This document shows positions 5,838 through 64,000 of a stretch of DNA of 64,000 nucleotides, one piece after another; within the stretch, counting starts at the first letter, position 1, and the number at the start of each line of letters is the position of its first letter. This DNA comes from Closterium sp. NIES-65. Its lineage: Eukaryota > Streptophyta > Zygnematophyceae > Desmidiales > Closteriaceae. Location: contig CANXME010002514.1 of assembly GCA_948144175.1 (NCBI GenBank), positions 124,001 through 188,000 of the forward strand, written 5' to 3'. Position numbers and translations under genes: made by a program. Under the pieces are notes generated by a model that was given only the letters and a program-made list of their open reading frames with translations, had not been told where the DNA came from and ran no database searches.

Positions 5838-6930
5838 TGTTGGTGTAAGGGCCTAATAAACTCAAGCTATTAAGACTTTATCACACTTAAAACCTCTCCT
5901 CGGGGTCACCTCCAAGGGTCCTTGGGTGCCTGGTACAAGACCAGCCCCTATCCTCGGGTCCGAGTTTGTAGAGAGAGGGATCAAGAGGGACTTAGTCAAA
6001 ACAGCAAGAGTACCTTGAACGTCGCGCAGCGTATCGTGCAGACCGTCGATCGGATTAAGCTGAGAATTTCCTATATCGAAGCTCACTCTAAGAGCTTTAA
6101 AATAAGCCAAGTTGCCTCGCGAAAAGTTCTGCCATTACGAAGTTATGGCTCGGACAGCGTTAGCCTAGCGTTGGAGTGCTAGCGTACTAGCGTTGACTCG
6201 GGTAGCGTTCCGCCATCGCACCGCGTAGAAAAGAAATTCCAGCAAGGAAGGAATTCGCTTGAATCAATTTCACTATATTCAGGTACAAACAGAGAAGGAA
6301 TAAATAGCTCTAGCTAGCAAGGACCTTGGGAATCAACCTGGGAACAACCAGGGATGATCCCAAATAATTCCAAGCAACAGAACCAACCTGGCTGAACAAA
6401 ATAGCAGGTGATAGGTTGGTGAACAACCTCTGGTTCTGTTTTTCCAACCTGGGAAAACAACAACCAGGTTCAGGTCCTAAAAACAGAACCTGTTTTGTCT
6501 TTGCCCAACCAGCCAAATGCTAGTTCCGCTGGTTTCCCCTGGGCCTGTAGCATGCAGATACAGACAAACAACATCCAACCTTCACCTAAATTGTACCCCT
6601 ATAGTGCCTGCCCTGCTACACTATAGTCAACCAAACAAAACAGTACAATTTCGAGTTGGATAGAACTGAATCTGCGCAATCAAGTAAGCCGAACCGCAAA
6701 GCTTCCATCTTGGGTTCCTTTGCGAGCTCGTCCTTTCTGCTTGTACTGTTCATAGCGCGTACAATGTTATGCCGAAGCGCACATTTTGCGAGTACCTGCA
6801 AATGCTTCAAGCGAAAATTGCGAAAGCAAACAAACACACAAACATACCATTCACACGCAAATGCATTCGCACACGCATACTCGTACAAACAGACGGCAGG
6901 ATGTCGTGCAATGTGAATTTGCACCCAACA
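5838..6930 (-). repeat. Solo Cop-N LTR inside copy A
   Basis: A complete 1,093-bp LTR in reverse orientation, flanked by CAGAT at 5833-5837 and 6931-6935, lying in the integrase region of copy A. No internal sequence accompanies it, so it is the usual product of recombination between the two LTRs of one insertion. It shares rare variants with the 3' LTR of copy I (a GTTCAGCC and a CTATCACC stretch), so both probably come from one recent source. Confidence 0.95.
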
Positions 6931-9512
6931 CAGATCGGGGTGGTGAGTTCCTTGGAGCTGAGATGACGGCCTGGCTCAAGAAGCAGGGCATCCAGAGGGA
7001 GCTGACCACAGCTTACACCCCACAGTCCAACGGTGTAGCAGAACGGGCGAACCGGACAATTCTGGAGACAGCTAGGGCGCTGCTCATAGAATCTGGGCTG
7101 GGCAACTTGATGTGGCCCCATGCTGTTCGGCATGCTACCGTCGCTAGAAACAGGGTACTCACAAAGGTTGGGGATGACTCGTGGGTGCCGTTGGAGAGGT
7201 GGCTTGGGAGGAAGCCGCCGGTGGACATGCTGAGGGTGTTCGGTTGCATGGCAGTCGCCCACGTCCCCAAGACCTACCGCAGTAAGTTGGGGGCGAGTGC
7301 AATCTGGTGTGTGCATTTGGGGCTGGCTGCTGAGAGCAAGGGATGGCTGCTGTGGGAACCCTCCAAGGGTGTGTTATTTGACAGCAGGGATGTGAAGTTT
7401 GTTGAGGGCATGATGTATGGGAGCTGGGAGAAACAGCCGGAGGCCAGGGTGTCCCAGCAGATGGAGCAGATTACCATGCAGCTGGACCTGACTCCTAGTG
7501 TGTGGGAGGAGGGAGAGGAGGCAGCTGCAGAGGGTGGTGATAAAGAGAAGGTGCAGGAGGCACCTGCTGGTGGAGGTGATGGTGTGGAGATTAGCGGTAG
7601 CACTAGTGGAGCTGCTGGATCCGAGGGAGGAGAGCAGCAGCAGGGGAAAACTAAGAAGCCGAAGGGTGTTGTTATGAAGGGATGGGAGACACCCGTCTCC
7701 AGGCCAGGACGTACCCGTATGGCTACTAAGAAGCTGACTGCAGGAGCTGATGTAGCGGAGCAGCAGCTTGGGACCGAGGAGGCCTTGCTGATTCTACCGC
7801 ATGGCTATGATCCGGATGAGGAGGATGAGCCTGCGTACTGTTTTCTTGCCCCTGCACCAGAGGAACCAGCTAGCATGGAGGAGGCATTAGCTGGACCAGA
7901 TAGGGACAAATGGCTGGCTTCTAGGGATGCTGAGTACCAGAGCCTGCTGGATAATGGGACTTGGGAACTGGTGGTGCTGCCTGAGGGAAAGAAAGCGGTA
8001 CAATGCAAGTGGATACTAAGGATCAAGACTGACGACAAGGGGCAGGTCACCATCTACAAGAGTAGGTTGGTGGCTAAGGGGTTTATGCAGAAGGAGAAGC
8101 GGGACTTCAATGAGATCTTTGCTCCCACTGCCAAAACCCCTACCCTTCGTGTCTTGTTGGCAGATGCAGCCGTTGGTGGGAAGTTCATTATCTAGATGGA
8201 CATATCAACGGCATTCCTCAACGGGATTTTAGAGGAGGAGGTGTTCATGACGCAGCCACCTGTGTATGAGGATGGTACGGGCAGGGTGTGCAAGCTGAAA
8301 AAGTCCATCTACGGCTTGAAGCAGGAGCCACGCTGCTGGTACCAGAAGTTGGCAGCTGTTTTAGAGGAGATGGGATTCAGGACCAGCAGCTGTGATGAGA
8401 GCCTCTTTCTCAAGGGGGAGGGGGAGAAGCTGGTGCTGTTTCTGGTCTATGTGGACGACATTCTTCTCTTTAGCAGCAGCATGAAGGAGATCCAGAAGGT
8501 GCAGCAGCAGCTGATGGAGAACTTCAAGTGCAAGAACCTTGGGGAGGTAAAGTACTACCTCGGGATGCACGTGGAGAGAGATCTGGATCACAGGTGGTTG
8601 AAGCTGCACCAGGAGAAGTTCATCAAGGAGCTTGGGGAGAAGTACGGAATTGAGAATGAGCGCAAGGTTGCAACTCCCCTGCCAGCAGAATTCAAGCTTG
8701 TGAAAGCTGCAGAGGATGAAGGGGTTGAAGCCGAGGAGCAGCAGCAATTTCAGTCCTTGGTGGGCAGCCTCTTGTATGCAGCAGTTCACACGAGGCCCGA
8801 CATCTCTTTCTCGGTTGGGCAGCTGGCTAGGGTAGTGCAGAATCCATCAGAGGAGCAGGTGGATGCAGCTGAGCGTGTGGTGAAGTATCTGAGCTCTCAC
8901 CCAAGCATTGGAGTTCAATACTCCGCATCTGCACAGGTGAAGCAGAAAGGGGTTGAGGTGCTGAAAGAGAAGGGGGAGAGGCTTGGAGAAGGCAAGCTTT
9001 TTCTCACTTGCTTTACTGATGCTACGTGGGCCTCTGAGAAGGAGGATTCCTCATCTGTGGGAGGATACATCTGCGTAGTTGGAGGAGGACCGGTTAGTTG
9101 GAGGTCAAAGAAGCAGACGGAGACAGCACTCTCTTCCGTGGAATCAGAGTACATGGCGATGTTCCATGGGGTGAAGGAGGTGATTTGGCTGAGGAGGCTG
9201 TTGGAGGAGATTGGCCAGGAGCAAAAGGTTGCTACGCCGTTGTTTTGTGATAGCAAGGGAGCTCTTGGGATGGCCAGGAACGCTGTGCTTCATGGGCTGA
9301 ATAAGCACATGCGTATCAAGTGGCACTGGCTGCGTAAGGAGGTGAAGAGGGGGACGGTGAATCCGATCTACATCAAGACTCACCAGCAACCAGCAGACTT
9401 CCTCACAAAGAGGCTTGCGGATGAGCCTCATTGGCGTTGTGTGCGCATGAGTGGAATGAGCATGATCTAGTATGGAATGATGGGGATGCAGCCGGCAGGC
9501 TGAGGGGGAGTG

Positions 9513-10605
9513 TGTTGGGTGCAAATTCACATTGCACGACATCCTGCCGTCTGTTTGTACGAGTATGCGTGTGCGAATGCATTTGTATGTGAATGGTATG
9601 TTTGTCTGTTTGCTTGCTTTCGCAATTTTCGCTTGAAGCATTTGCAGGTACTCGCAAAATGTGCGCTTCGGCATAACATTGTACGCGCTATGAACAGTAC
9701 AAGCAGAAAGGACGAGCTCGCAAAGGAACCCAAGATGGAAGCTTTGCGGTTCGGCTTATTTGATTGCGCGGATTCAGTTCTATCCAACTCGAAATTGTAC
9801 TGTTTTGTTTGGTTGACTATAGTGTAGCAGGGCAGGCACTATAGGGGTACAATTTAGGTGAAGGTTGGATGTTGTTTGTCTGTATCTGCATGCTACAGGG
9901 CCAGGGGAAACCAGCGGAACCAGCATTTGGCTGGTTGGGCAAAGACAAAACAGGTTCTGTTTTTAGGACCTGAACCTGGTTGTTGTTTTCCCAGGTTGGA
10001 AAAACAGAACCAGAGGTTGTTCACCAACCTACCACCTGCTATTTTGTCCAGCCAGGTTGGTTCTGTTGCTTGGAATTATTTGGGATCATCCCTGGTTGTT
10101 CCCAGGTTGATTCCCAAGGTCCTTGCTAGCTAGAGCTATTTATTCCTTCTCTGTTTGTACCTGAATATAGTGAAATTGATTCAAGTGAATTCCTCCCTTG
10201 CTGGAATTTCCTTTCTACGCGGTGCGACAGCGGAATGCTACCCGAGTCAACGCTAGTACGGTAGCACTCCAACGCTAGGCAAACGCTGTCCGAGCCATAA
10301 CTTCGTAATGGCAGAACTTTTCGCGAGGCAACTTGGCTTATTTTAAAGCTCTTAGAGTGAGCTTCGATATAGGAAATTCTCAGCTTAGTCCGATCGACGG
10401 TCTGCACGATTCGCTGCGCGACGTTCAAGGTACTCTTGCTGTTTTGACTAAGTCCCTCTTGATCCCTCTCTCTACAAACTCGGACCCGAGGATAGGGGCT
10501 GGTCTTGTACCAGGCACCCAAGGACCCTTGGAGGTGACCCCGAGGAGAGGTTTTAAGTTTGATAAAGTCTTAATAGCTTGAGTTTATTAGGCCCTTACAC
10601 CAACA
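9513..10605 (+). repeat. Cop-N LTR, 3' LTR of copy A
   Basis: 1,093 bp, preceded by the purine-rich tract GGCTGAGGGGGAGTG. It differs from the 5' LTR of the same copy at a single base by eye. Confidence 0.97.
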
Positions 10606-10610
10606 GATAG

Positions 10611-10816
10611 AACGAGGAATGACTAGAAACAAGGCAGTACAAGGTTTCTGTAGGCAAAACCTAACAATACTGTACCCCACAAGGAGTGTTCCAATACAGC
10701 CTACAACATAGTTCTGACAAACAGTTACTCTTATATGACTTAGAAATTGTTATGTATAATAAGAAAGATTATGAAAAAAATAAAAAAGGCATTGTAGAAA
10801 TTGTTAAGGAAACACA
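10611..10816 (-). repeat. Copia-1 5' LTR, remainder
   Basis: Continues the LTR begun at 2641, making about 218 bp in all. The proposed end is AAACACA at 10810-10816, mirroring the TGTG start. The stretch is AT-rich, unlike its surroundings. The outer end is set only by the TGTG/CACA symmetry, so it is uncertain by some tens of bases. Confidence 0.5.
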
Positions 10817-10849
10817 TAAGTTTACTGCTCGAGAGCATGTTGGGGACGC

Positions 10850-11500
10850 TACCAGCACGCTTCGTTAAGCAGGAGCCGCGGGCGGCGTACCGAGCGGAGG
10901 AAGCAGACTTGTTTAAGGACCTAGACAAATGGACCTGGCAGGAGTATGTAGAGGAGGGAACGCGGAGGATTGAAATGAGCGAGACGGGGCAACGGACGCC
11001 AGATCTTAAGGACCGTGTTAGCAAGATCTGGTGTCTCAAAGGTGCCATCTGCATCCTGAAGCTTTTCGGGGGTATTGGAACCGGGCTAGCAGGGGCGTTG
11101 AAGGCAGGGTGTTTTGTATGGAAATGGATCCACGTTGTGAAGGACCCGGTAGTGCGGAAGATGGCGTACCATCATGCGCTCAAACTTCTGGAGGAGTACC
11201 CCCAACAGATGTCGATTTCTGCGATCCACCAAGAGGGCGCCGAAGAAGTTCATGATGTGCGCGACATCACGCGACCGCAGTTGGAGGTTTGGGGACCAGT
11301 AGACCTTGTCGTCGCAGGCTGGGAATGCCAGGGGTACTCGCGAGCTGGGGAAGGGAGAGGAATGGGAGATCCTCAGGGAGCCTCGTTCCGGGACCTAGAG
11401 GGGGTGTTGAGGATGCTACATCAGACGGGAAGGGAGTTCATCTTCATTCTGGAGAACGTGGACATGGCAAACGACCGGAGGGAGCAAGCTAGCATACGAG
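10850..11500 (+). other. C5 cytosine methyltransferase-like domain in the gypsy-like element
   Basis: C5-methyltransferases transfer a methyl group from S-adenosylmethionine to cytosine in DNA. The segment shows a motif I-like glycine-rich loop (LKLFGGIGTGLAGALKAG, near 11056-11110), a motif IV-like stretch (VDLVVAGWECQGYSRAG, near 11302-11350) with the cysteine-glutamine pair of the catalytic loop, a following GDPQG...FRDLEGVLRML, and a motif VI-like FILENV (near 11448-11460). The spacing between motifs fits the family. It lies on the same strand as, and directly upstream of, the reverse transcriptase remnant. I take it as cargo of that element rather than a host gene, but cannot exclude a host gene fragment lying next to a gypsy fragment. 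Confidence 0.7.
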
Positions 11501-11638
11501 GAGATTCAATCACTGTTGGGGAGGGGGGTGGCGGCCGACGCGGCGCAGCTGGGCTCAAGGGCACATCGGCCCCGCCGCTACTGGCAGAATGGCGTATAAA
11601 AAACGCAGCCGCAGCTGAGAGGGGTCCCAGCTGCCGCC

Positions 11639-11935
11639 GATTACATTGACGATGTGATTGTGTTCAGCGCTAACGAAGAGGAACACGTGAAGGATGTGCA
11701 GGCCACGCTGGACGCGATAAAACAAGCAGGGCTAACCTGCCACCCGAAGAAGTGCAGGTTTGGGCAGCGGACAGTGCAGTATCTAGGATTCGAAGTGGGC
11801 GATGGGAAGTTGGGCGTCCAAGAGGCGAAGATGGAGGTCCTAGATCAAGTTCCCTCGCCCACAGATCGCTCTTTCCTGAGAGCAGTCCTAGGATTCCTCG
11901 GGTACAACCGGAGGTTCGTCCCGAACCTTAGCTGA
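11639..11935 (+). other. Ty3/gypsy reverse transcriptase remnant
   Basis: Begins at DYIDDVIVFS, the reverse transcriptase active-site motif. It continues with HVKDVQATLDAIKQAGLT, CHPKKCRFG and VQYLGFEV, then LRAVLGFLGYNRRFVPNLS, the typical Ty3/gypsy connection region. Sequence after the solo LTR at 13127 continues the same element with RNase H. Confidence 0.85.
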
Positions 11936-12033
11936 ACAGCAGCAGTCCTGAACCGCTCTGTGAGAGAAGAGCAACCGTGCCAGTAGGGAGACAAGGAGCA
12001 GCAGGCCTTGAACCATCTGACCTAAGTCGTCCA

Positions 12034-13126
12034 TGTTGGTGTAAGGGCCTAATAAACTCAAGCTATTAAAACTTTATCAAACCTAAAACCTCTCCTCGGG
12101 GTCACCTCCAAGGGTTCTTGGGTGCCTGGTACAAGACCAGCCCCTATCCTCGGGTCCGAGTTTGTAGAGAAAGGGATCAAGAGGGACTTAGTCAAAACAG
12201 CAAGAGTACCTTGAACGTCGCGCAGCGTATCGTGCAGACCGTCGATCGGATTAAGCTGAGAATTTGCTATATCGAAGCTCACTCTAAGAGCTTTAACATA
12301 AGCCAAGTTGCCTCGTGAAAAGTTCTGCCATTACGAAGTTATGGCTCGGACAGCGTTAGCCTAGCGTTGGAGTGCTAGCATACTAGCGTTGACTCGGGTA
12401 GCATTCCGCCGTCGCACCGCGTAGAAAGGAAATTCCAGCAAGGAAGGAATTCGCTTGAATCAATTTCACTATGTTCAGGTACAAACAGAGAAGGAATATA
12501 TAGTCCAAGCTAGCAAGGACCTTGGGAATCAACCTGGGAAGAACCAGGGATGATCCCAAAAAATTCCGAGCAACAGAACCAACCTGGCTGGACAAAACAG
12601 CAGGTGGTAGGTTGGTAAACAACCTCTGGTTCTGTTTTTCCAACCTGGGAAAACAACAACCAGGTTCAGGTCCTAAAAACAGAACCTGTTTTGTCTTTGC
12701 CCAACCAGCCAAATGCTGGTTCCGCTGGTTTCCCCTGGCCCTGTAGCATGTAGATACAGACAAACAACATCCAACCTTCACCTAAATTGTACCTCTATAA
12801 TGCCTGCCCTGCTACACACTAGTCAACCAAACAAAACAGTACAATTTCGAGTTGGATAGAACTGAATCTGCTCAATCAATTCAACCGAACCGCAAAGCTT
12901 CCATCTTGGGTTCCTTTGCGAGCTCGTCCTTTCTGCTTGTACTGTTCATTGCGCGTACAATGTTGTGCCGAAGCGCATAATGCGCGAGTACCTGCAAATG
13001 CTTCAAGCGAAAAATGCGAAAGCAAACAAACACACCAACATTCCATTCACACCCAAATGCATTCGCACACGTATACTCATACAAACAGACGGCAGGATGT
13101 CGTGCAATATGAATTTGCACCCAACA
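12034..13126 (-). repeat. Solo Cop-N LTR (third LTR subfamily) in the gypsy-like element
   Basis: A complete 1,093-bp LTR in reverse orientation between the reverse transcriptase and RNase H regions. It carries the markers of the third Cop-N LTR subgroup (on its own strand GCGCATTATGCGC and TTCGGTTGAATTGATT), shared with the LTRs at 20063 and 61219. The five bases on each side (GTCCA and GCCGC) do not match, unlike most other insertions here. Confidence 0.9.
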
Positions 13127-14362
13127 GCCGCGACGGTACTGGCGCTACCAAACAAGAATGACCCGTTTGTGCTATACACCGACTGGAGTAGTGGAGGGAT
13201 GGGCGTTGTACTATGCCAAGAGAAGGAAGGAGAAGAGAAGGTGGTGGCCTCTGCTAGCCGCAACTGCAACCCTGCCGAGGCCAACTACCGCTCGTATGAA
13301 GGAGAGGGACTGGCGGCCGTATGGGCGATCACGCATTTCCGTGTGTACCTGCAAGGGAGGCCGTTCATACTCGTCACTGACTACCAGCCTTTGACCTGGC
13401 TAATGACGAACCAGGCGCTCATAGAACGGAACGCGCGGTGGGCTATGAGGCTACAAGAATACGACTTCGTCATCAAACATAGGCCGGGTAAAAGTATGCA
13501 ACACGTGGACGGCCTGTCACAGCACCCAGCTCTGGAGAGACCGTCGGCATGCCTAGTAGCTATGGCACTAGACATAAATTGGGCAGGAGCCAAGAGGAGC
13601 AACAGGCGGGGACAGGAGGACGTGTGGGAGGATTGGGAAGTGCTGCAGTGGGTACACGGCAAGACTGGGGAAGACGGAGCCGTGCCAGAGCGAGTAAGGG
13701 TGCGAAGGGCCCACTACCGGTGGTACCAGGACCAACTGCAGGTAAACACGAAGGAAGGCTGGAATGTAGTGCCGGAGCCAAGGCAGAGAGAAGCGACAAT
13801 TGCACGTGTGCATCGTCAGCTGGGACTCTTTGGGGAACTGAGGACACAACAACTAGTAGAGACCGCGTGGTGGTGGGCCGGGATGAGGAAGCAGGTGAAG
13901 GAGTGGGTGAAGGGCTGCGAGCTGTGTAGCCGCAACAGGGCGGAACTGGACTGCGGGAGGCAGGACCTCCAGTCGCTGCCCATCTACGGATTGGGGTTCC
14001 GCTGGTCGTTGGATCTGGCAGGGGAAATGCCATTGAGCCACCGGGGCAAGCAATACATACTGATCATGATTGAGCATGACAGAAAGTGGGTGGAAGTGAA
14101 AGCGCTGCTGAGTAAGAACTCAGCACGGATCACAGAAGCTTTCGAAGAACAAGTGTTGACACGGTTCGGGGCGTCCGGAGAAGTGTTGACGGACCAAGGC
14201 ACCGAATTCCAAAGGCACTTTGACCAGCTCTTGCAAGAGATAGGAATCACGCACCGAAGGACCTCCCGATACCACCCCCAAAGCGACGGCCTTACTAAGA
14301 GGTCCGTGCAAACCCTGAAGAAAGGGCTGCGGGCGTACGGAGAGCAGTATAAGCGAGATTGA
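13127..14362 (+). other. Ty3/gypsy RNase H and integrase remnant
   Basis: RNase H is recognisable by VLYTDWSSGGMGVVL, the AVWAITHFRVYL helix, VTDYQPLTWL and the tether-like HRPGKSMQHVDGLSQHP. The integrase zinc-binding region follows (VHRQLG...CELCSRNRA, about 13807-13935). The catalytic core follows that (WSLDLAGEMP, VLTDQGTEFQ, YHPQSDG, about 14000-14310). It belongs with the reverse transcriptase piece to the left and is part of a broken element. Confidence 0.85.
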
Positions 14363-14964
14363 GACCTAAGGCTACCCTGGGTGACAGCCAGGTATCACTT
14401 CAGCAAACAAGCGGCTCCGAGGGACATGTCGCCGTATTACCTTCTCCGAGGGAGGGAGCCCGTCCTTCCCATTGCGCGCCGAAACTACTGACGGACACAA
14501 TACTGGCGGGGGTAGCAGTGGCAGAAGCACGAGCCAAATACCTGCGGGAGCTACTGCCAGCGGCTTTGGAGAATCTACATGTTGCCCAGCTGAGGGATGT
14601 GCAGAGATATAAGCAGCGAGGAAGCAAGAGATAGGGAGAACGGAGCAAGGCCATCCGGCCTGGAAGGGAAGTATACTTGAGGAAGGCGAGGGGGGACCTG
14701 CTAGATATTGGACTTACGACAAAGAGGTGGAAGGTGCGGGAGGTGAAGAACTCGGGGGTGATCGTACTCATGAGCGCAAAGGGGGAGGAGCGCAGGGACC
14801 ACGTCACCAACGTAGCGCCAGCCTGGCCTAGACGCGCAGGCACGGGCCAGAAGGAAGAAGGCACGAGGGGCTTCCGTGTTACTGAGTGCAGGGATCCTTC
14901 AGCTAACCCAGGAGCTAGGAGCCGAGGAGGGGGCAAGCGAGGGAGACAGGGAGGTCAGCACTAA
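14363..14964 (+). other. Integrase C-terminal and tail region of the gypsy-like element
   Basis: Degraded coding sequence after the integrase core. A stretch near 14700-14830 (KRWKVREVKNSGVIVLMS...DHVTNVAPAW) resembles the small barrel domain found after many Ty3/gypsy integrases. Beyond about 14880 the translation is low in complexity and I recognise nothing. Confidence 0.5.
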
Positions 14965-15073
14965 GGCAGGAGCAGAGGACGGAAGGGCATGGGAAGGAAC
15001 TAGCGAAGCGGAGAGCCAAGAGAGGAAGAGTCATATTCCGACAGTCATCATAAACTCATCCTTGAGTTCTTGA

Positions 15074-15378: not shown

Positions 15379-18300
15379 CAACTCCCTCTCGGATTGTTGG
15401 CCTTAGGATCTGTTGCTCTTAATTTACAGCCATCCCAGCCAGCTTGCAACACTTCCAATACTTCTGCTCCACCAGCCTCTTGGTCATCGTGTTAGCCAGC
15501 TGCCCCGTCATCTTCACATAGCGCAACTCAACTTCACACGCGGCCACCATGCTCCTCCTCCAATGCCACTTCACCCTCATGTGCTTAGTGAAGCCGTGCA
15601 ACACAGGATGGGAGTGTTTACCGCCACATACATGAGGCTGCCCACCAACGAGTGAAAATGGCACCTCTCCTCTTCACCAACGCTCTCGTCCTCTGGTCCC
15701 TTCATACACTTGAACCCAGAGGGAAAGGGTGTAGCCTCATGACCTTCACTCTGCCCAAAGTTGGCAGCCAATGCCTCTAGGTACTTTCATCGGTGCACCC
15801 GTATGCACCGCTTCTCCACGTCGCGTTCGATTTGGAGCCCGAGGTAGAAGTCTACGTTGCCGAATTCCTTGCACTTGAACCTTTCCTGAAGCATTAGTAT
15901 CACCTCCTTCACAAGGTCAGAGGAGGGTGAGAAGATGAGGATGTCATCCATGTATACCACCATGAAGCTGCTCTGCTTCCCCTCGCAAAGCATGAACAAG
16001 GAGTGATCGGCCGTTGAGGGAGTGAAGCCGATCTCCTCCAAAACTTCTTGCAGCTTCAAGCACCACCGCCTAGGGGCCTACTTCAGCCCATAGAGAGCTT
16101 TCTTCAGCTTCAAAACTCTGCCACTACCATCATCAAACCCCTCTGGCTGCGCCAAGAAAATCTCTTCTTCAAAGATGTCGTTGAGGAACGCGGTTGTCAC
16201 GTCCATTTGTTTCACCACCCATCCTTTGATGGCAGCCCCCGCAAGTAGGGTCCGCAGCGTCGTCGGCTTCACCACAGGAGCAAACAGCTCGTTGAAGTCC
16301 ACCTTCTCCTCCTGCTGGTACCCCTTGGCTACAAGCCTAGACTTGTAGCGCTAGATCTTGCCGTCGGCGTCCGACTTGATCTTGAAGAGCCACTTGGACG
16401 TAATTGCCTTACGCCCCTCTGGTAGCTCCACCAATTCCCACGTGTCGTTCTCCTCAATACACTTCAACTCGCTCTCCATGACCTTCTTCCACTCCTCAGC
16501 ATCAATATTCTCCAAGGCCTCCTTCACAGTTGCTGGTTCCCCCGGCATCTCCACCGGACAGAACACGAAGGAACACTCCACGTAGTCGCTTTCCTCATCA
16601 TCTCCGACCATCATTGTTGCTCCGGCCAGGGCTGACTTTCCCTGCTTTCCCGGTGCATCATAGGTGCTTGATCTATCCTCTTGCTCCTTCCTTCCTACTC
16701 AACTGCAGGGACTTGAAGGCCTTGGCGTTGCTGCAGGGTGAATTGGATCCTTGGAGCACTCGTAGTGCGAGAAGGAAGTGTCAGTGCAAGCTCGCTCACT
16801 TGCTGCACCTCCTCCTCCTCTTCCTCTGCATCCTTGGCCTCCTCTCCCCCATTCACATGGGAAGATTGGCTTGTGGTAGTGCTGCCACTGCTCAGCTCCA
16901 AAGGCAGCTCCACGTGCTCCAAGTCGGAACTCTTAACCTCCCCAAACCGGATGCCTATCTTCGCCTCACTCTCCGCATTCCAATTCTTGTACATGAGGTT
17001 CTTCATGAACTTGCAGTCCCTTCTTACCAAAAACTTCTTGGTGAATGGGTACGAAAGAAGCCACCCCTTGCTGTTTTGAGCCATGCCGAAGTGCACGGCC
17101 CATATCGCCTTGGCACCAAGTTTGTTGTGCCGAAGATGCTTAGGTACGAGCGTCATGCACATGCACCTGAACACCCGAAGCATATCCACCTTTTTCTTCC
17201 TTCCAATCCACTCCACATAGGGCTCCCATTGGTCTGCTCCCACATGAGTCAAAGCTCTGTTCTTGGCCACACACGCACTCCGCACCGCATCAGGCCAAAA
17301 GTAATCGGGTAACCCGGCTTCAATGAGCAACCTGCGTGCCGTCTCTGTGATGGTGCGGTTCGCTCGCTCGGCGATGCCGTTCATTGCAGGGGAGTACGGC
17401 ATGGTAAGAGAGTGCCATATCCCATTCTCCTTCAGCCACAATCCAAACTCCTTGCTCAAGAACTCTCCCCCTCGATCGGTGCGGATTGACTTGACTAGCC
17501 GGTCAGGTTGCCACTCCACCATCCGCAACCGATCGGTCTTCACCGTTTCAGCCACGTCACTCTATAGGATAGCACGTATACCAGGTCATGCGGGTGTAGA
17601 AGTTGACAATGGTGAGGAAGTTTTCTGCTCCAGCAGTTCCTAGGTTCAAGGCGCCCACCTCGTCCATCACCACCTCATCAAGTGGTGCCTTAGCCGTTGC
17701 CTCCGAGCTAGAGAACGGGTAATGGATAAACTTGGCTTGCATGCACGTGGGGCAGCCAAGTACCTCTTCGGGCTCCCCCTTCACACGTATGCCAGCAACC
17801 ATCTCTCCCTTTACTAGCTGCTGCAAGATAGGCAGGGCCACATGCCCCATTCACCGGTGCAAGGTGAGCCAATTACACTCCCCCGTAGCCGAAGTCGGAT
17901 TGGAGAATGCCGCACTCGCAATAGTGCCCCACATGCTCCCTCCATACTCCTCCGCTGCTACCTTGGGTTTCTCCTCACCCTTGTGCTGCTCCTTGGCTTC
18001 TGCACCACTATCCGTGACCGTTCGCGCCATCGCCGCTACCAATAGCTTCACCCTTGGTGCTGGCGCTTGTTCCCTCTTGCCTCTCCTTGGGCATAGGGAC
18101 CACAGGGATCTGCCACATCTCGTTGTAGACATCTCTATCCTCGTGAAGGTTCTAAAGGATCCGCTCGCCAATCCTTGCTGTGTAGGTCTGGCTCCCTTCA
18201 AGTTTGTGTCCATTTGCCGGAAATCAGGTTTGCAGCAAGAATGGGCACCCAAAGCACGTTCTTAAGGCCCACCATCTTCCAATCAGCACCCATGAACATG

Positions 18301-19563: not shown

Positions 19564-19576
19564 AACATTCTAGTGC

Positions 19577-20062
19577 TACATACTATTCTTTTGCCATAGG
19601 GGCTGGTTTGAGCTCGTTCGCACAACTACGCAGCACGCGACGCTTGTTTCTGCGTTTACTGGCCTGAATCTGTGCAAGGATAGGCCTGTGCGCAACATGT
19701 CACCGTTTCAACTTCTGGATGTACCATTTGGTTAGTTATTACATCCTATTCTCTTACTATAGGAACTGTTTCGAGCTCTTCTGCACAACTATGCAGCACG
19801 TGACGCTTGTTTGTGCGTTTGCTGGCCCGAATCTGTGCAATGATAGGCCTGTGCGCAACATGTTAGCGTTTCAGCGTTGAGATGTTGTGTTTAGCAATAT
19901 TTCTTCACAAATTCAGGTATTACATCTTATTCTCTTGCCGTAGGAACGGGTTTGAGCTAGTCTGAACCACTACGCAGCACGTGACGCATGTTTGTGCGTT
20001 TACTTGCCTCTAGCTATCAAAGGATGGGCCCGTGTGTAAACATGTCACCGTTTCAACATTTG
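19577..20062. repeat. Three-unit tandem repeat, period about 163-181 bp
   Basis: Units start at 19577, 19740 and 19921 with TACATMYTATTCT-like sequence. Each continues through a TTTGAGCT-like stretch, CTACGCAGCACG, a GTTTGTGCGTTT-like stretch, a GGCCTGTGCGCAACATG-like stretch and CACCGTTTCAAC. They differ at 15-25% of positions by eye. No coding frame. The third unit is cut by the LTR at 20063. Possible source: the leader or LTR of Copia-3, or a satellite. Confidence 0.75.
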
Positions 20063-63080: not shown

Positions 63081-64000
63081 GCCTGCCCCCTCCTCAGTCA
63101 AAAAGAAGACACCGGCTGTTTACTTGATGACACCTTGTTCAGGATGTTGTTTCCATGACATGCAAAAGGATTTCTTTTGTTGCGTAAGATTTAGCTGTAT
63201 GTATTTCTGTTTTGTAGGTTGTGGGCGGCAGAAATTTTGTTTCACATATCCAGTTTGTATTGCAAACGACTCGTTCAGCAGGATTGCATAGCCCAACAGA
63301 TTTTGAGTCTGTCCCGTTAACCACTCCGGTATAAACGCGACGTATAACGTTTTTATGTAATATTCTATGTTGTAAAGTTGTTTGTATATTTTTGTCACCC
63401 TCGAAACATTTCTACATGGGGGGAGTTGAACACTCAATAATGTTCTCTCACTATTATCGGGAATATTCTCCACGCTTCTAGATTCGGTTTGTCCATCCAT
63501 CATTATAGTCGTCTCGAAAGGCTGAATTCTATTTTTTCGAGCTCTCCTCTTAGATATATAACGAAGCACTCATATCTTGATAGTATTCTTGCCTCGATCT
63601 TTCCCTTATCCGCCCTAAGAGATCCCACCTACTCCTTCATACGTCTTACTCGATTTGACGTCCCGTGCGTTTTGAATCCCCGATAAACGCGCTTGCGCTC
63701 GCTCTTCACAGGATCGTAAACGCATTCGTAGGCAATAGTCTACTTGCTATTGCTTATCTTGTTCTCCACGATCTCCCAAATCCAACAATATGCGCAGCTC
63801 TGCTTGAAGTTGTGAGTTGTAAAGGAAAATTATTTTCCTTACTTCACGTCCCTGCTCAGCACATACACTCCTGTTCCCGCCAACAGCACTCAACAGTAAA
63901 CTGTTACCACTCGCAACATTCGCCTCGACACTGTTTCCGCCACTGTTCACGACACGACCCAGCCTCAAGGTTCGGTTGGTAACCTGCGTTCCGGACCTCT
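63081..64000. other. Unassigned, less GC-rich tail
   Basis: No recognisable gene, repeat or RNA. A minus-strand open frame of 149 codons at 63120-63569 has no motif I know and unremarkable composition, so I do not call it. A purine-rich CATGGGGGGAGT near 63414 could be the polypurine tract of yet another element, but nothing around it supports that. Confidence 0.4.

What the first reader, a model, noticed from the sequence alone, without database searches (positions are those of the whole stretch)
10850..15073. Ty3/gypsy-like retroelement carrying a C5 DNA methyltransferase domain
Seen: methyltransferase motif I-like (LFGGIGTGLAGALKAG), IV-like (VVAGWECQGYSRAG) and VI-like (FILENV) stretches directly upstream of, and on the same strand as, a gypsy YIDD reverse transcriptase, RNase H and integrase. 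Known, from memory: charophyte and dinoflagellate retrotransposons have independently taken up DNMT genes, and self-methylation of the element was proposed. This would be a further, decayed case. Inference: the element could have influenced its own silencing state. The placement of the methyltransferase ahead of reverse transcriptase may differ from the reported elements.
Basis: partly seen in the sequence, partly recalled or inferred. Interest (0 to 1): 0.85.

Follow-up and report, generated by a model that had tools for sequence, protein, structure and literature searches.

The report
Jumping gene carrying a DNA methylase
The window holds a broken copy of a large family of jumping genes in a green-plant-lineage genome that carry their own DNA-methylating enzyme; the kind was reported before in one alga, but the intact relatives here also suggest an unusual way of inserting into the host DNA, through a circle.

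Summary
The window holds a decayed Ty3/gypsy copy: a cytosine-5 methyltransferase (MTase) fragment, then pieces of reverse transcriptase (RT), RNase H and integrase, all on the + strand. Gag, protease and about 416 codons between MTase and RT are missing; an antisense solo copia LTR splits RNase H.

The same 874-Mb genome holds many relatives: 141 places scored with the window MTase; by my count 34 MTase places in open frames of 2000 codons or more. Two copies read in full show gag-protease-MTase-RT-RNaseH-integrase in one frame. The MTase is DNMT3-like and under purifying selection.

This is the kind of element reported from Klebsormidium (KnitGypsy-Dnmt3, de Mendoza 2018), DIRS-like repeats included, so I file it as a new member of a known kind.

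Not found in print by my searches: the repeats (A-ORF-B-GC-A-B, 4-bp target duplications, TGTC...GACA ends) are out of register with the primer sites, which predict an LTR of B-GC-A. The A|B joint varies between near-identical copies of one subfamily; B-GC-A is a palindrome, GACAGCTGTC. I infer a self-primed gypsy whose integrase opens DNA circles inside the LTR. MTase activity is untested.

The parts
10831..11596 (+). DNMT3-like C5 methyltransferase fragment, motifs I (LFGGIGTG), IV (AGWECQG), VI (ILENV) and, after a frameshift near 11485, VIII (GSRAHRPRRYW); motif numbers by recall
   Evidence: Pfam PF00145 9.6e-7; tblastn of intact copy L041 residues 676-893 and 898-932
11600..12033 (+). 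3' part of gypsy reverse transcriptase (YIDD) and what follows it, cut by the LTR insertion
   Evidence: Pfam RVT_1 1.3e-11; L041 residues 1349-1491
12034..13126 (-). antisense solo copia LTR inserted in the RNase H region
   Evidence: 95% inverted match to 9513-10605
13130..14473 (+). RNase H, H2C2 zinc finger and DDE integrase core
   Evidence: Pfam RT_RNaseH, Integrase_H2C2, rve; L041 residues 1490-1937, 73%
14476..14835 (+). integrase C-terminal part, frameshifted
   Evidence: L041 residues 1939-2063, 58%
14924..14933 (+). purine tract GAGGAGGGGG, the putative plus-strand primer site that precedes repeat B in intact copies
   Evidence: same kind of tract in intact copies
14934..15043 (+). 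degenerate B repeat ending TTCCGACA; right end of the element, no A2-B2 after it
   Evidence: position of the end (no blastn match of the B module there); sequence read directly

Best explanation
A decayed copy of a multi-lineage family of Ty3/gypsy retrotransposons whose single polyprotein is gag-protease-DNMT3-like MTase-RT-RNaseH-integrase. SHOWN from sequence: this order; retained MTase catalytic motifs; purifying selection; the repeat order A-ORF-B-GC-A-B with TGTC...GACA ends and 4-bp target duplications; a primer-like site just after A that is complementary to a stretch inside A; a purine tract just before B; a GACAGCTGTC palindrome at B|A in two deep lineages; and, in one subfamily, a variable A|B joint. 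INFERRED: (1) the RNA starts inside A and its 5' end primes its own reverse transcription, as in Tf1 (about 0.8); (2) reverse transcription makes an LTR of B-GC-A, so the linear product is B-A-ORF-B-A (about 0.7); (3) its ends are joined into a two-LTR circle, which gives the variable A|B joint, and the integrase cuts a palindrome inside an LTR, leaving CA-3' ends with two-base overhangs that integrate as A-ORF-B-GC-A-B; one-LTR circles, or linear DNA cut at both palindromes, would give the A-ORF-B form (about 0.55); (4) the MTase, made with the polymerase, methylates the new cDNA before or at integration, so that it reads as host-like DNA or takes a favourable chromatin state (about 0.5).
For: Copies and frames. 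Motifs. DNMT3 nearest among solved structures. dN/dS of MTase 0.019, 0.053 and 0.089 in three pairs, RT 0.030 and 0.115 in two of them. Repeats and target duplications. Self-primer complementarity: 14 nt in 25 of 27 readable A ends, and a different matching pair in the C550 lineage; 0 of 2000 shuffles in each of three copies from three lineages. Joint variability: in the L039 type 5 of the 9 copies at 97.5% or more to the reference have an indel at A|B, against 10 indels elsewhere in 8 of them over 782 bp; over the whole samples 8 of 17 L039-type, 1 of 8 L041-type and 4 of 8 C1051-type copies, against 0.095, 0.040 and 0.020 indels per 9-nt window per copy elsewhere. Precedent for integrase cutting the palindrome at LTR-LTR junctions: PMC1180852 and PMC1905944 (abstracts).
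Against: No RNA, circle, methylation or enzyme data. The usual motif IV Pro-Cys is Glu-Cys in all seven element rows compared, and motif VI ENV is ENL or EHL in three of them, so activity cannot be assumed. CpG observed/expected is higher in the elements (0.78-0.87) than in neighbouring copia sequence and flanks (0.44-0.62), which is not what lasting CpG self-methylation would leave, though age and composition differ. In the L041 type 7 of 8 copies have the A|B joint of their reference, and the two C550-type copies that keep it share one joint, as inheritance would also give; joints shared by descent may also inflate the L039 count. Most copies were chosen by an exact B-GC-A joint, so its constancy is partly a matter of choice. 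The A-ORF-B form could come from B1 x B2 recombination; a solo A-B with target duplication suggests that such recombination occurs (C2078).
Confidence: 0.6

Rival explanations
1. Same element, but the split repeats are copied as in DIRS elements: the B-A stretch of the RNA templates a circle directly and A|B is inherited from A2-B2. No end-joined two-LTR circle is needed, and A-ORF-B copies are B1 x B2 recombinants.
For: Repeat order equals the one that de Mendoza 2018 calls typical of DIRS. A|B joint as in the reference in 7 of 8 L041-type copies and the same in two C550-type copies. Solo A-B with a target duplication points to repeat recombination (C2078).
Against: A|B carries indels in 5 of 9 near-identical L039-type copies, including a 30-nt loss exactly there. 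Integrase is DDE with 4-bp target duplications, not a tyrosine recombinase. The self-primer site and purine tract suit LTR-type reverse transcription.
Confidence: 0.3
2. The MTase domain is kept for a role other than DNA methylation, for example RNA or particle binding, or it methylates RNA.
For: Pro to Glu next to the catalytic Cys in all seven element rows; motif VI altered in three of them. CpG less depleted in the elements than around them. de Mendoza 2018 discusses RNA methylation for the LINE type, whose tested enzyme did not methylate DNA in yeast.
Against: Catalytic Cys, motif I, motif VI Glu and motif VIII arginines are kept in all seven element rows; SymbioDIRS-Dnmt3 enzymes were reported to methylate CG de novo.
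Confidence: 0.25
3. The MTase and the gypsy pieces lie together by chance nesting or assembly error.
For: The window is full of nested, broken elements.
Against: Protease-MTase-RT in one open frame in each of L026, L029, L039, L041 and, 49-50% identical to L041, L134, L135 and L136.
Confidence: 0.01

Closest known systems
KnitGypsy-Dnmt3 of Klebsormidium nitens (de Mendoza et al. 2018, PMC5890265; abstract, sections 9 and 11 and passages read)
   Same: Gypsy domains, a Dnmt3-type DNMT in the Pol frame, purifying selection on it, and a repeat structure described as that of DIRS.
   Different: Other genome. Whether motif IV, MTase position, self-primer, palindrome and variable joint are shared could not be checked: its sequence is not held here, and the main text has no 'circular', 'split', 'self-prim' or 'primer binding'.
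SymbioDIRS-Dnmt3 and SymbioLINE-Dnmt of dinoflagellates (same paper)
   Same: Retroelements with a DNMT; SymbioDIRS has A-coding-B-A-B repeats.
   Different: Tyrosine recombinase (DIRS) or LINE elements; here a DDE integrase and 4-bp target duplications.
Tf1/sushi group, Tcn1 (self-primed chromoviruses; PMC6317226, passages)
   Same: Primer site complementary to the element's own RNA instead of a tRNA.
   Different: Split repeats and an MTase here; no chromodomain among the Pfam hits at E 0.01 in L039 and L041.
Foamy virus and HIV-1 integrase cutting of the LTR-LTR palindrome (PMC1180852, PMC1905944, abstracts)
   Same: Integrase cuts the palindrome of two-LTR junctions.
   Different: There the palindrome is the joint of the two LTRs; here it lies inside the LTR that the primer sites predict.
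DNMT3 and phage DNMT3-like C5 methyltransferases
   Same: Unrotated motif order; best solved match DNMT3A/3B; best phage match Morganella phage Henu15, 29%, 2e-12.
   Different: AGWEC in place of the Pro-Cys motif; a separate group with 100/99 support.

Membership tests
Ty3/gypsy LTR retrotransposons | PR-RT-RNaseH-integrase order with DDE integrase, nearest to Ty3 | tested here: met
   Pfam order in L039 and L041, protease hit in L041 only; best solved match Ty3 Gag-Pol 7q5b, 2e-81
Ty3/gypsy LTR retrotransposons | Identical LTRs at both ends of the integrated copy | tested here: not met
   Left end A only, right end B-GC-A-B or B
KnitGypsy-Dnmt3 | Dnmt3-type DNMT inside the Pol frame of a gypsy element | tested here: met
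KnitGypsy-Dnmt3 | DIRS-like repeats | tested here: met
   A-coding-B-A-B
KnitGypsy-Dnmt3 | Purifying selection on the DNMT (Ka/Ks below 0.2) | tested here: met
   0.019, 0.053, 0.089 in three diverged pairs; 0.079 and 0.272 in two near-identical pairs with few changes; three further pairs saturated or above dS 2 (0.148, 0.207, or not computable)
KnitGypsy-Dnmt3 | Common descent with the Klebsormidium copies | not testable with these tools
   No Klebsormidium sequence held in the collections used
DIRS | Tyrosine recombinase, no target duplication | tested here: not met
   rve/H2C2 integrase; 4-bp target duplications
DIRS | Split direct repeats | tested here: met
Self-primed (Tf1-type) elements | Primer site complementary to the RNA 5' end | tested here: inconclusive
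   Complementarity found; RNA start not measured
DNMT3 methyltransferases | Unrotated motifs with catalytic Cys, nearest to DNMT3 | tested here: met
   (among solved structures only)
DNMT3 methyltransferases | Pro-Cys in motif IV | tested here: not met
   Glu-Cys in all seven element rows
DNMT3 methyltransferases | Cytosine methylation of DNA | not testable with these tools
   No assay

The most novel reading that the evidence does not exclude
A class of gypsy retrotransposons that must pass through a two-LTR circle. Self-primed reverse transcription makes LTRs of one register, integrase uses a palindrome in the middle of that LTR, and the integrated copies are therefore circularly permuted. 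The two-LTR form is the one that keeps a 3' copy of the RNA start region and so can replicate again. A DNMT3-like enzyme in the polyprotein marks the circle or cDNA before it enters the genome.
Probability: 0.5. Interest if true: 0.82.

Novelty: new member of a known kind. Interest (0 to 1): 0.62.

Why it matters
DNMT-carrying gypsy elements were described from one charophyte; here, in a genome with a green-type plastid, they are abundant, split into several deep lineages and recently active, so why a parasite keeps an enzyme of the silencing system can be asked by comparing lineages. If the circle model holds, it would revive, in a different form, the old question of whether retroviral-type circles can be integration precursors, with insertion scars that can be read in a genome.

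Tried and rejected
Chance nesting or assembly error: rejected. Ordinary LTR element with LTR = A: rejected, since target duplications lie outside B. MTase taken from a bacterium or phage: not resolved; L041 scores 77 bits with a phage DNMT3-like enzyme and 53 with a (shorter) human DNMT3A stretch, and the tree does not order these groups. The scan of genome contigs found no relative (79 pattern matches, none confirmed); viral contigs gave two weak ones, 24% and 34% over short stretches, one of which (L137) I left out of the tree. C1133 has two B-GC-A joints 6863 bp apart and looks like a tandem; the upstream end was not found. The ends of the C2251 lineage were not resolved. C550 itself shows no B2. 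C1144 has an A-B without target duplication. Host: not named. rbcL gives 24 hits, with green-type (form IB, by recall) enzymes as best solved matches; the likeness to streptophytes is recalled, from no call.

Rows dropped. In one search, 8 of 35 5' ends were unreadable by my patterns. In one search, C298 (A cut short) and the first C1133 place have no B2, C1295 and C1780 a partial one. C850 and C612 look like duplicate contigs of C1975 and C387, and C1295 of C1244. In one search the count of 10 indels elsewhere leaves out C729b, which lacks B1 (it has 8).
Full report
OBSERVATION. Window 10798-11649 (+) is an open stretch with a Pfam DNA_methylase match (9.6e-7); 11600-11935 matches RVT_1 and 12866-14362 matches RNase H, integrase zinc finger and rve, all on the + strand. 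Against the intact copy L041 the window holds residues 676-932 (with a frameshift) and 1349-2063 of the 2119-residue polyprotein. Gag and protease are missing at the left, and about 416 codons are missing between MTase motif VIII and the YIDD of RT. A 1.1-kb antisense copy of the neighbouring copia LTR-like unit lies in RNase H. The right end is at 15043.

COPY NUMBER. The window is part of an 874-Mb assembly of 2400 contigs. The window MTase scores 141 places there (1238 candidates, 141 scored), the Pfam profile 123 (901 candidates, 123 scored), a human DNMT3B fragment 132 (778 candidates, 150 scored). These sets overlap and are lower bounds. By my count of the three lists, 34 places lie in uninterrupted frames of at least 2000 codons (12, 10 further, 12 further); some may be allelic contigs, and I read the domains of only a few of them. 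The nearest copy to the window is 92% identical over the MTase (C1812), the next 77%. No host-like DNMT3 came out above the element copies; exons may escape such a search, so absence is not shown.

ANATOMY OF INTACT COPIES. L039 and L041 have frames of 2123 and 2119 codons with CCHC zinc knuckle, protease (Pfam hit in L041), MTase, RT, RNase H, H2C2 and rve. In L134, L135 and L136 protease, MTase and RT also follow each other in one frame; L006 shows protease and MTase. These stretches are 41-50% identical to L041, so the arrangement is older than these lineages. All eight element MTases in the tree, the window's included, form one group (100/99).

THE METHYLTRANSFERASE. Motif order is unrotated. 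Motif I, the catalytic Cys of motif IV, the motif VI Glu and the motif VIII arginines are kept in all seven element rows (motif numbers by recall). The residue before the Cys is Glu, not Pro, in all seven; motif VI reads ENV in four, ENL in one, EHL in two. Among solved structures the profile is nearest to DNMT3A/3B (1.2e-11), then M.HhaI (7e-8), then 4onj, named only 'DNA methyltransferase' (7.8e-6; a plant DRM by recall), and DRM2 (0.003). Phage enzymes of DNMT3 type match to 2e-12 (143 records). The origin, host or viral, is open. dN/dS in diverged pairs is 0.019 (synonymous changes saturated), 0.053 and 0.089, against 0.030 and 0.115 for RT in the first two pairs and 0.174 for the linker in the first; deeper pairs (0.148, 0.207) have saturated synonymous sites. 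So the MTase is conserved about as strongly as RT.

REPEATS. In L039 and L041 the order is A1-ORF-B1-GC-A2-B2. The joint B-GC-A was sought as an exact 23-mer and found at 39 places, 0 for the reversed control. All 39 right ends were read and 37 have some B2 after A2, two of them partial. This sample is biased to an intact B-GC-A joint by its choice. Of 25 copies with a left A end and a right A-B end both readable (22 from that set plus C441, C2165 and C729b, the last without B1), 23 have exact 4-bp target duplications outside A1 and B2; C1639 has none and C1829 matches 3 of 4 (my reading; C850 and C1975 are probably one locus). A shorter form, A-ORF-B, was seen in four copies, three with exact duplications (C729a, C1072, and C1851 if its TG start is mutated) and one with 3 of 4 (C676). 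Among copies with A1 at 93% or more (40 of 173 candidates scored), 11 have the long form and 3 the short one. The C550 lineage shows the same layout and the same palindrome GACAGCTGTC; C550 itself lacks B2, but both further copies read have B2 and target duplications (C1977 TCAA, C430 CGGA).

PRIMER SITES. Right after A1 lies ACATACAAGCAAG. A contains its complement CTTGCTTGTATGTT at about base 204, 33-34 bases after a TACTTA box. The match is 14 nt in 25, 12 nt in one and 7 nt in one (the inner A of C1133) of 27 readable A ends (8 of 35 not readable). In the C550 lineage both the site and its partner are different and still match: 12 nt within the first 20 bases, 0 of 2000 shuffles; L039 14 nt and L041 13 nt, 0 of 2000 each. 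Such change on both sides is what self-priming predicts. Just before B1 lies a purine tract (GAGGAGGGGG; GTGAGGGGG in C550), though it lies within or near the end of the frame, so coding may explain it too.

REGISTER. With these primer sites, standard reverse transcription yields an LTR of B-GC-A. I saw no single integrated copy that begins with B or ends with A2 at a target duplication. The A|B joint is where the two ends of such a linear molecule would meet. Compared with L039, 5 of 9 copies at 97.5% or more have an indel within a few bases of A|B (extra T, A, AT, T, or a 30-nt loss), while 8 of them (C729b left out) have 10 indels in all elsewhere over 782 bp. Over the whole samples the joint differs in 8 of 17 L039-type copies (0.095 indels per 9-nt window per copy elsewhere), 1 of 8 L041-type (0.040) and 4 of 8 C1051-type (0.020). 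Copies that share a joint by descent are not independent. The B-GC-A joint shows no indel in 16 of 17, 8 of 8 and 8 of 8, but most of these were chosen by that joint. Cutting both strands after CA in GACAGCTGTC gives CA-3' ends with two-base 5' overhangs, the usual product of integrase processing (established knowledge). Foamy virus and HIV-1 integrases were reported to cut the palindrome of LTR-LTR junctions (PMC1180852, PMC1905944; abstracts only). Hence the inferred life cycle. Recombination between repeats also seems to happen: C2078 is a solo A-B with target duplication ACAC, so A-ORF-B copies need not come from circles.

WHAT THE MTASE DOES. de Mendoza 2018 (abstract, sections 9 and 11 and passages read) reported de novo CG methylation by SymbioDIRS-Dnmt3 enzymes, none by the tested SymbioLINE enzyme in yeast, and proposed methylation of the cDNA. 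The position in the same polyprotein as RT suits that. Against a lasting CpG burden, CpG observed/expected is 0.78-0.87 in three intact copies and the window copy, but 0.44 and 0.62 in two neighbouring copia stretches and 0.52 and 0.59 in two flanks (whole window 0.67); few sequences, different ages, no other contexts tested.

COMPARISON. The element meets every feature of KnitGypsy-Dnmt3 that I could test: gypsy domains, Dnmt3-type domain in Pol, DIRS-like repeats, purifying selection. Common descent was not testable. A 2025 survey (PMC12344493, passages) mentions DNMT3s in LTR Copia and DIRS elements of streptophytes and dinoflagellates. A brown-alga paper (PMC12477816, passages) mentions algal transposons with ParB and an N4-cytosine or N6-adenine methyltransferase, another kind. 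Ten searches of the open-access library (some lists capped, such as 15 of 103) listed no paper, by title and start of abstract, on gypsy elements that integrate from circles at an internal palindrome; subscription papers are mostly not in that library.

VERDICT. A real feature: a decayed copy of a known kind of element, abundant and recently active here (A1 = A2 at 100% in L039). The novel part is the inferred route through circles, about even odds.

Noticed in passing
window 6756-10605: A copia element on the + strand with a 1.1-kb LTR-like unit at 9513-10605; the same unit lies inverted at 5838-6932 and 12034-13126, and part of it in direct orientation from 3000, so several nested insertions of one copia family seem to stand here.
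   Followed up: partly
window 15419-17850: A second copia-like element, antisense, broken by frameshifts, directly right of the gypsy copy (read from the translations only).
   Followed up: no
window 19571-20000: Three diverged copies of an 86-nt unit spaced 163 and 181 bases apart.
   Followed up: no
window 63270-63338: Weak tRNA match on the minus strand, just over Rfam's cut-off (29.5 against 29 bits), E 0.043.
   Followed up: no
L062 and L063 (G000:C1133): Two B-GC-A joints 6863 bp apart in the same orientation, the left one preceded by the purine tract: a head-to-tail tandem of the element, whose left end was not found.
   Followed up: partly
G000 contigs C75, C97, C162, C824, C1848, C2174, C40 and others: rbcL occurs 20 times over the full profile, in both orientations at very different spacings within contigs: a plastid assembled as fold-back concatemers, or an unusual plastid genome.
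   Followed up: no
L039, L040, L041 and the window copy: MTase-carrying copies are less CpG-depleted than neighbouring copia sequence and flanks, even the decayed window copy.
   Followed up: partly
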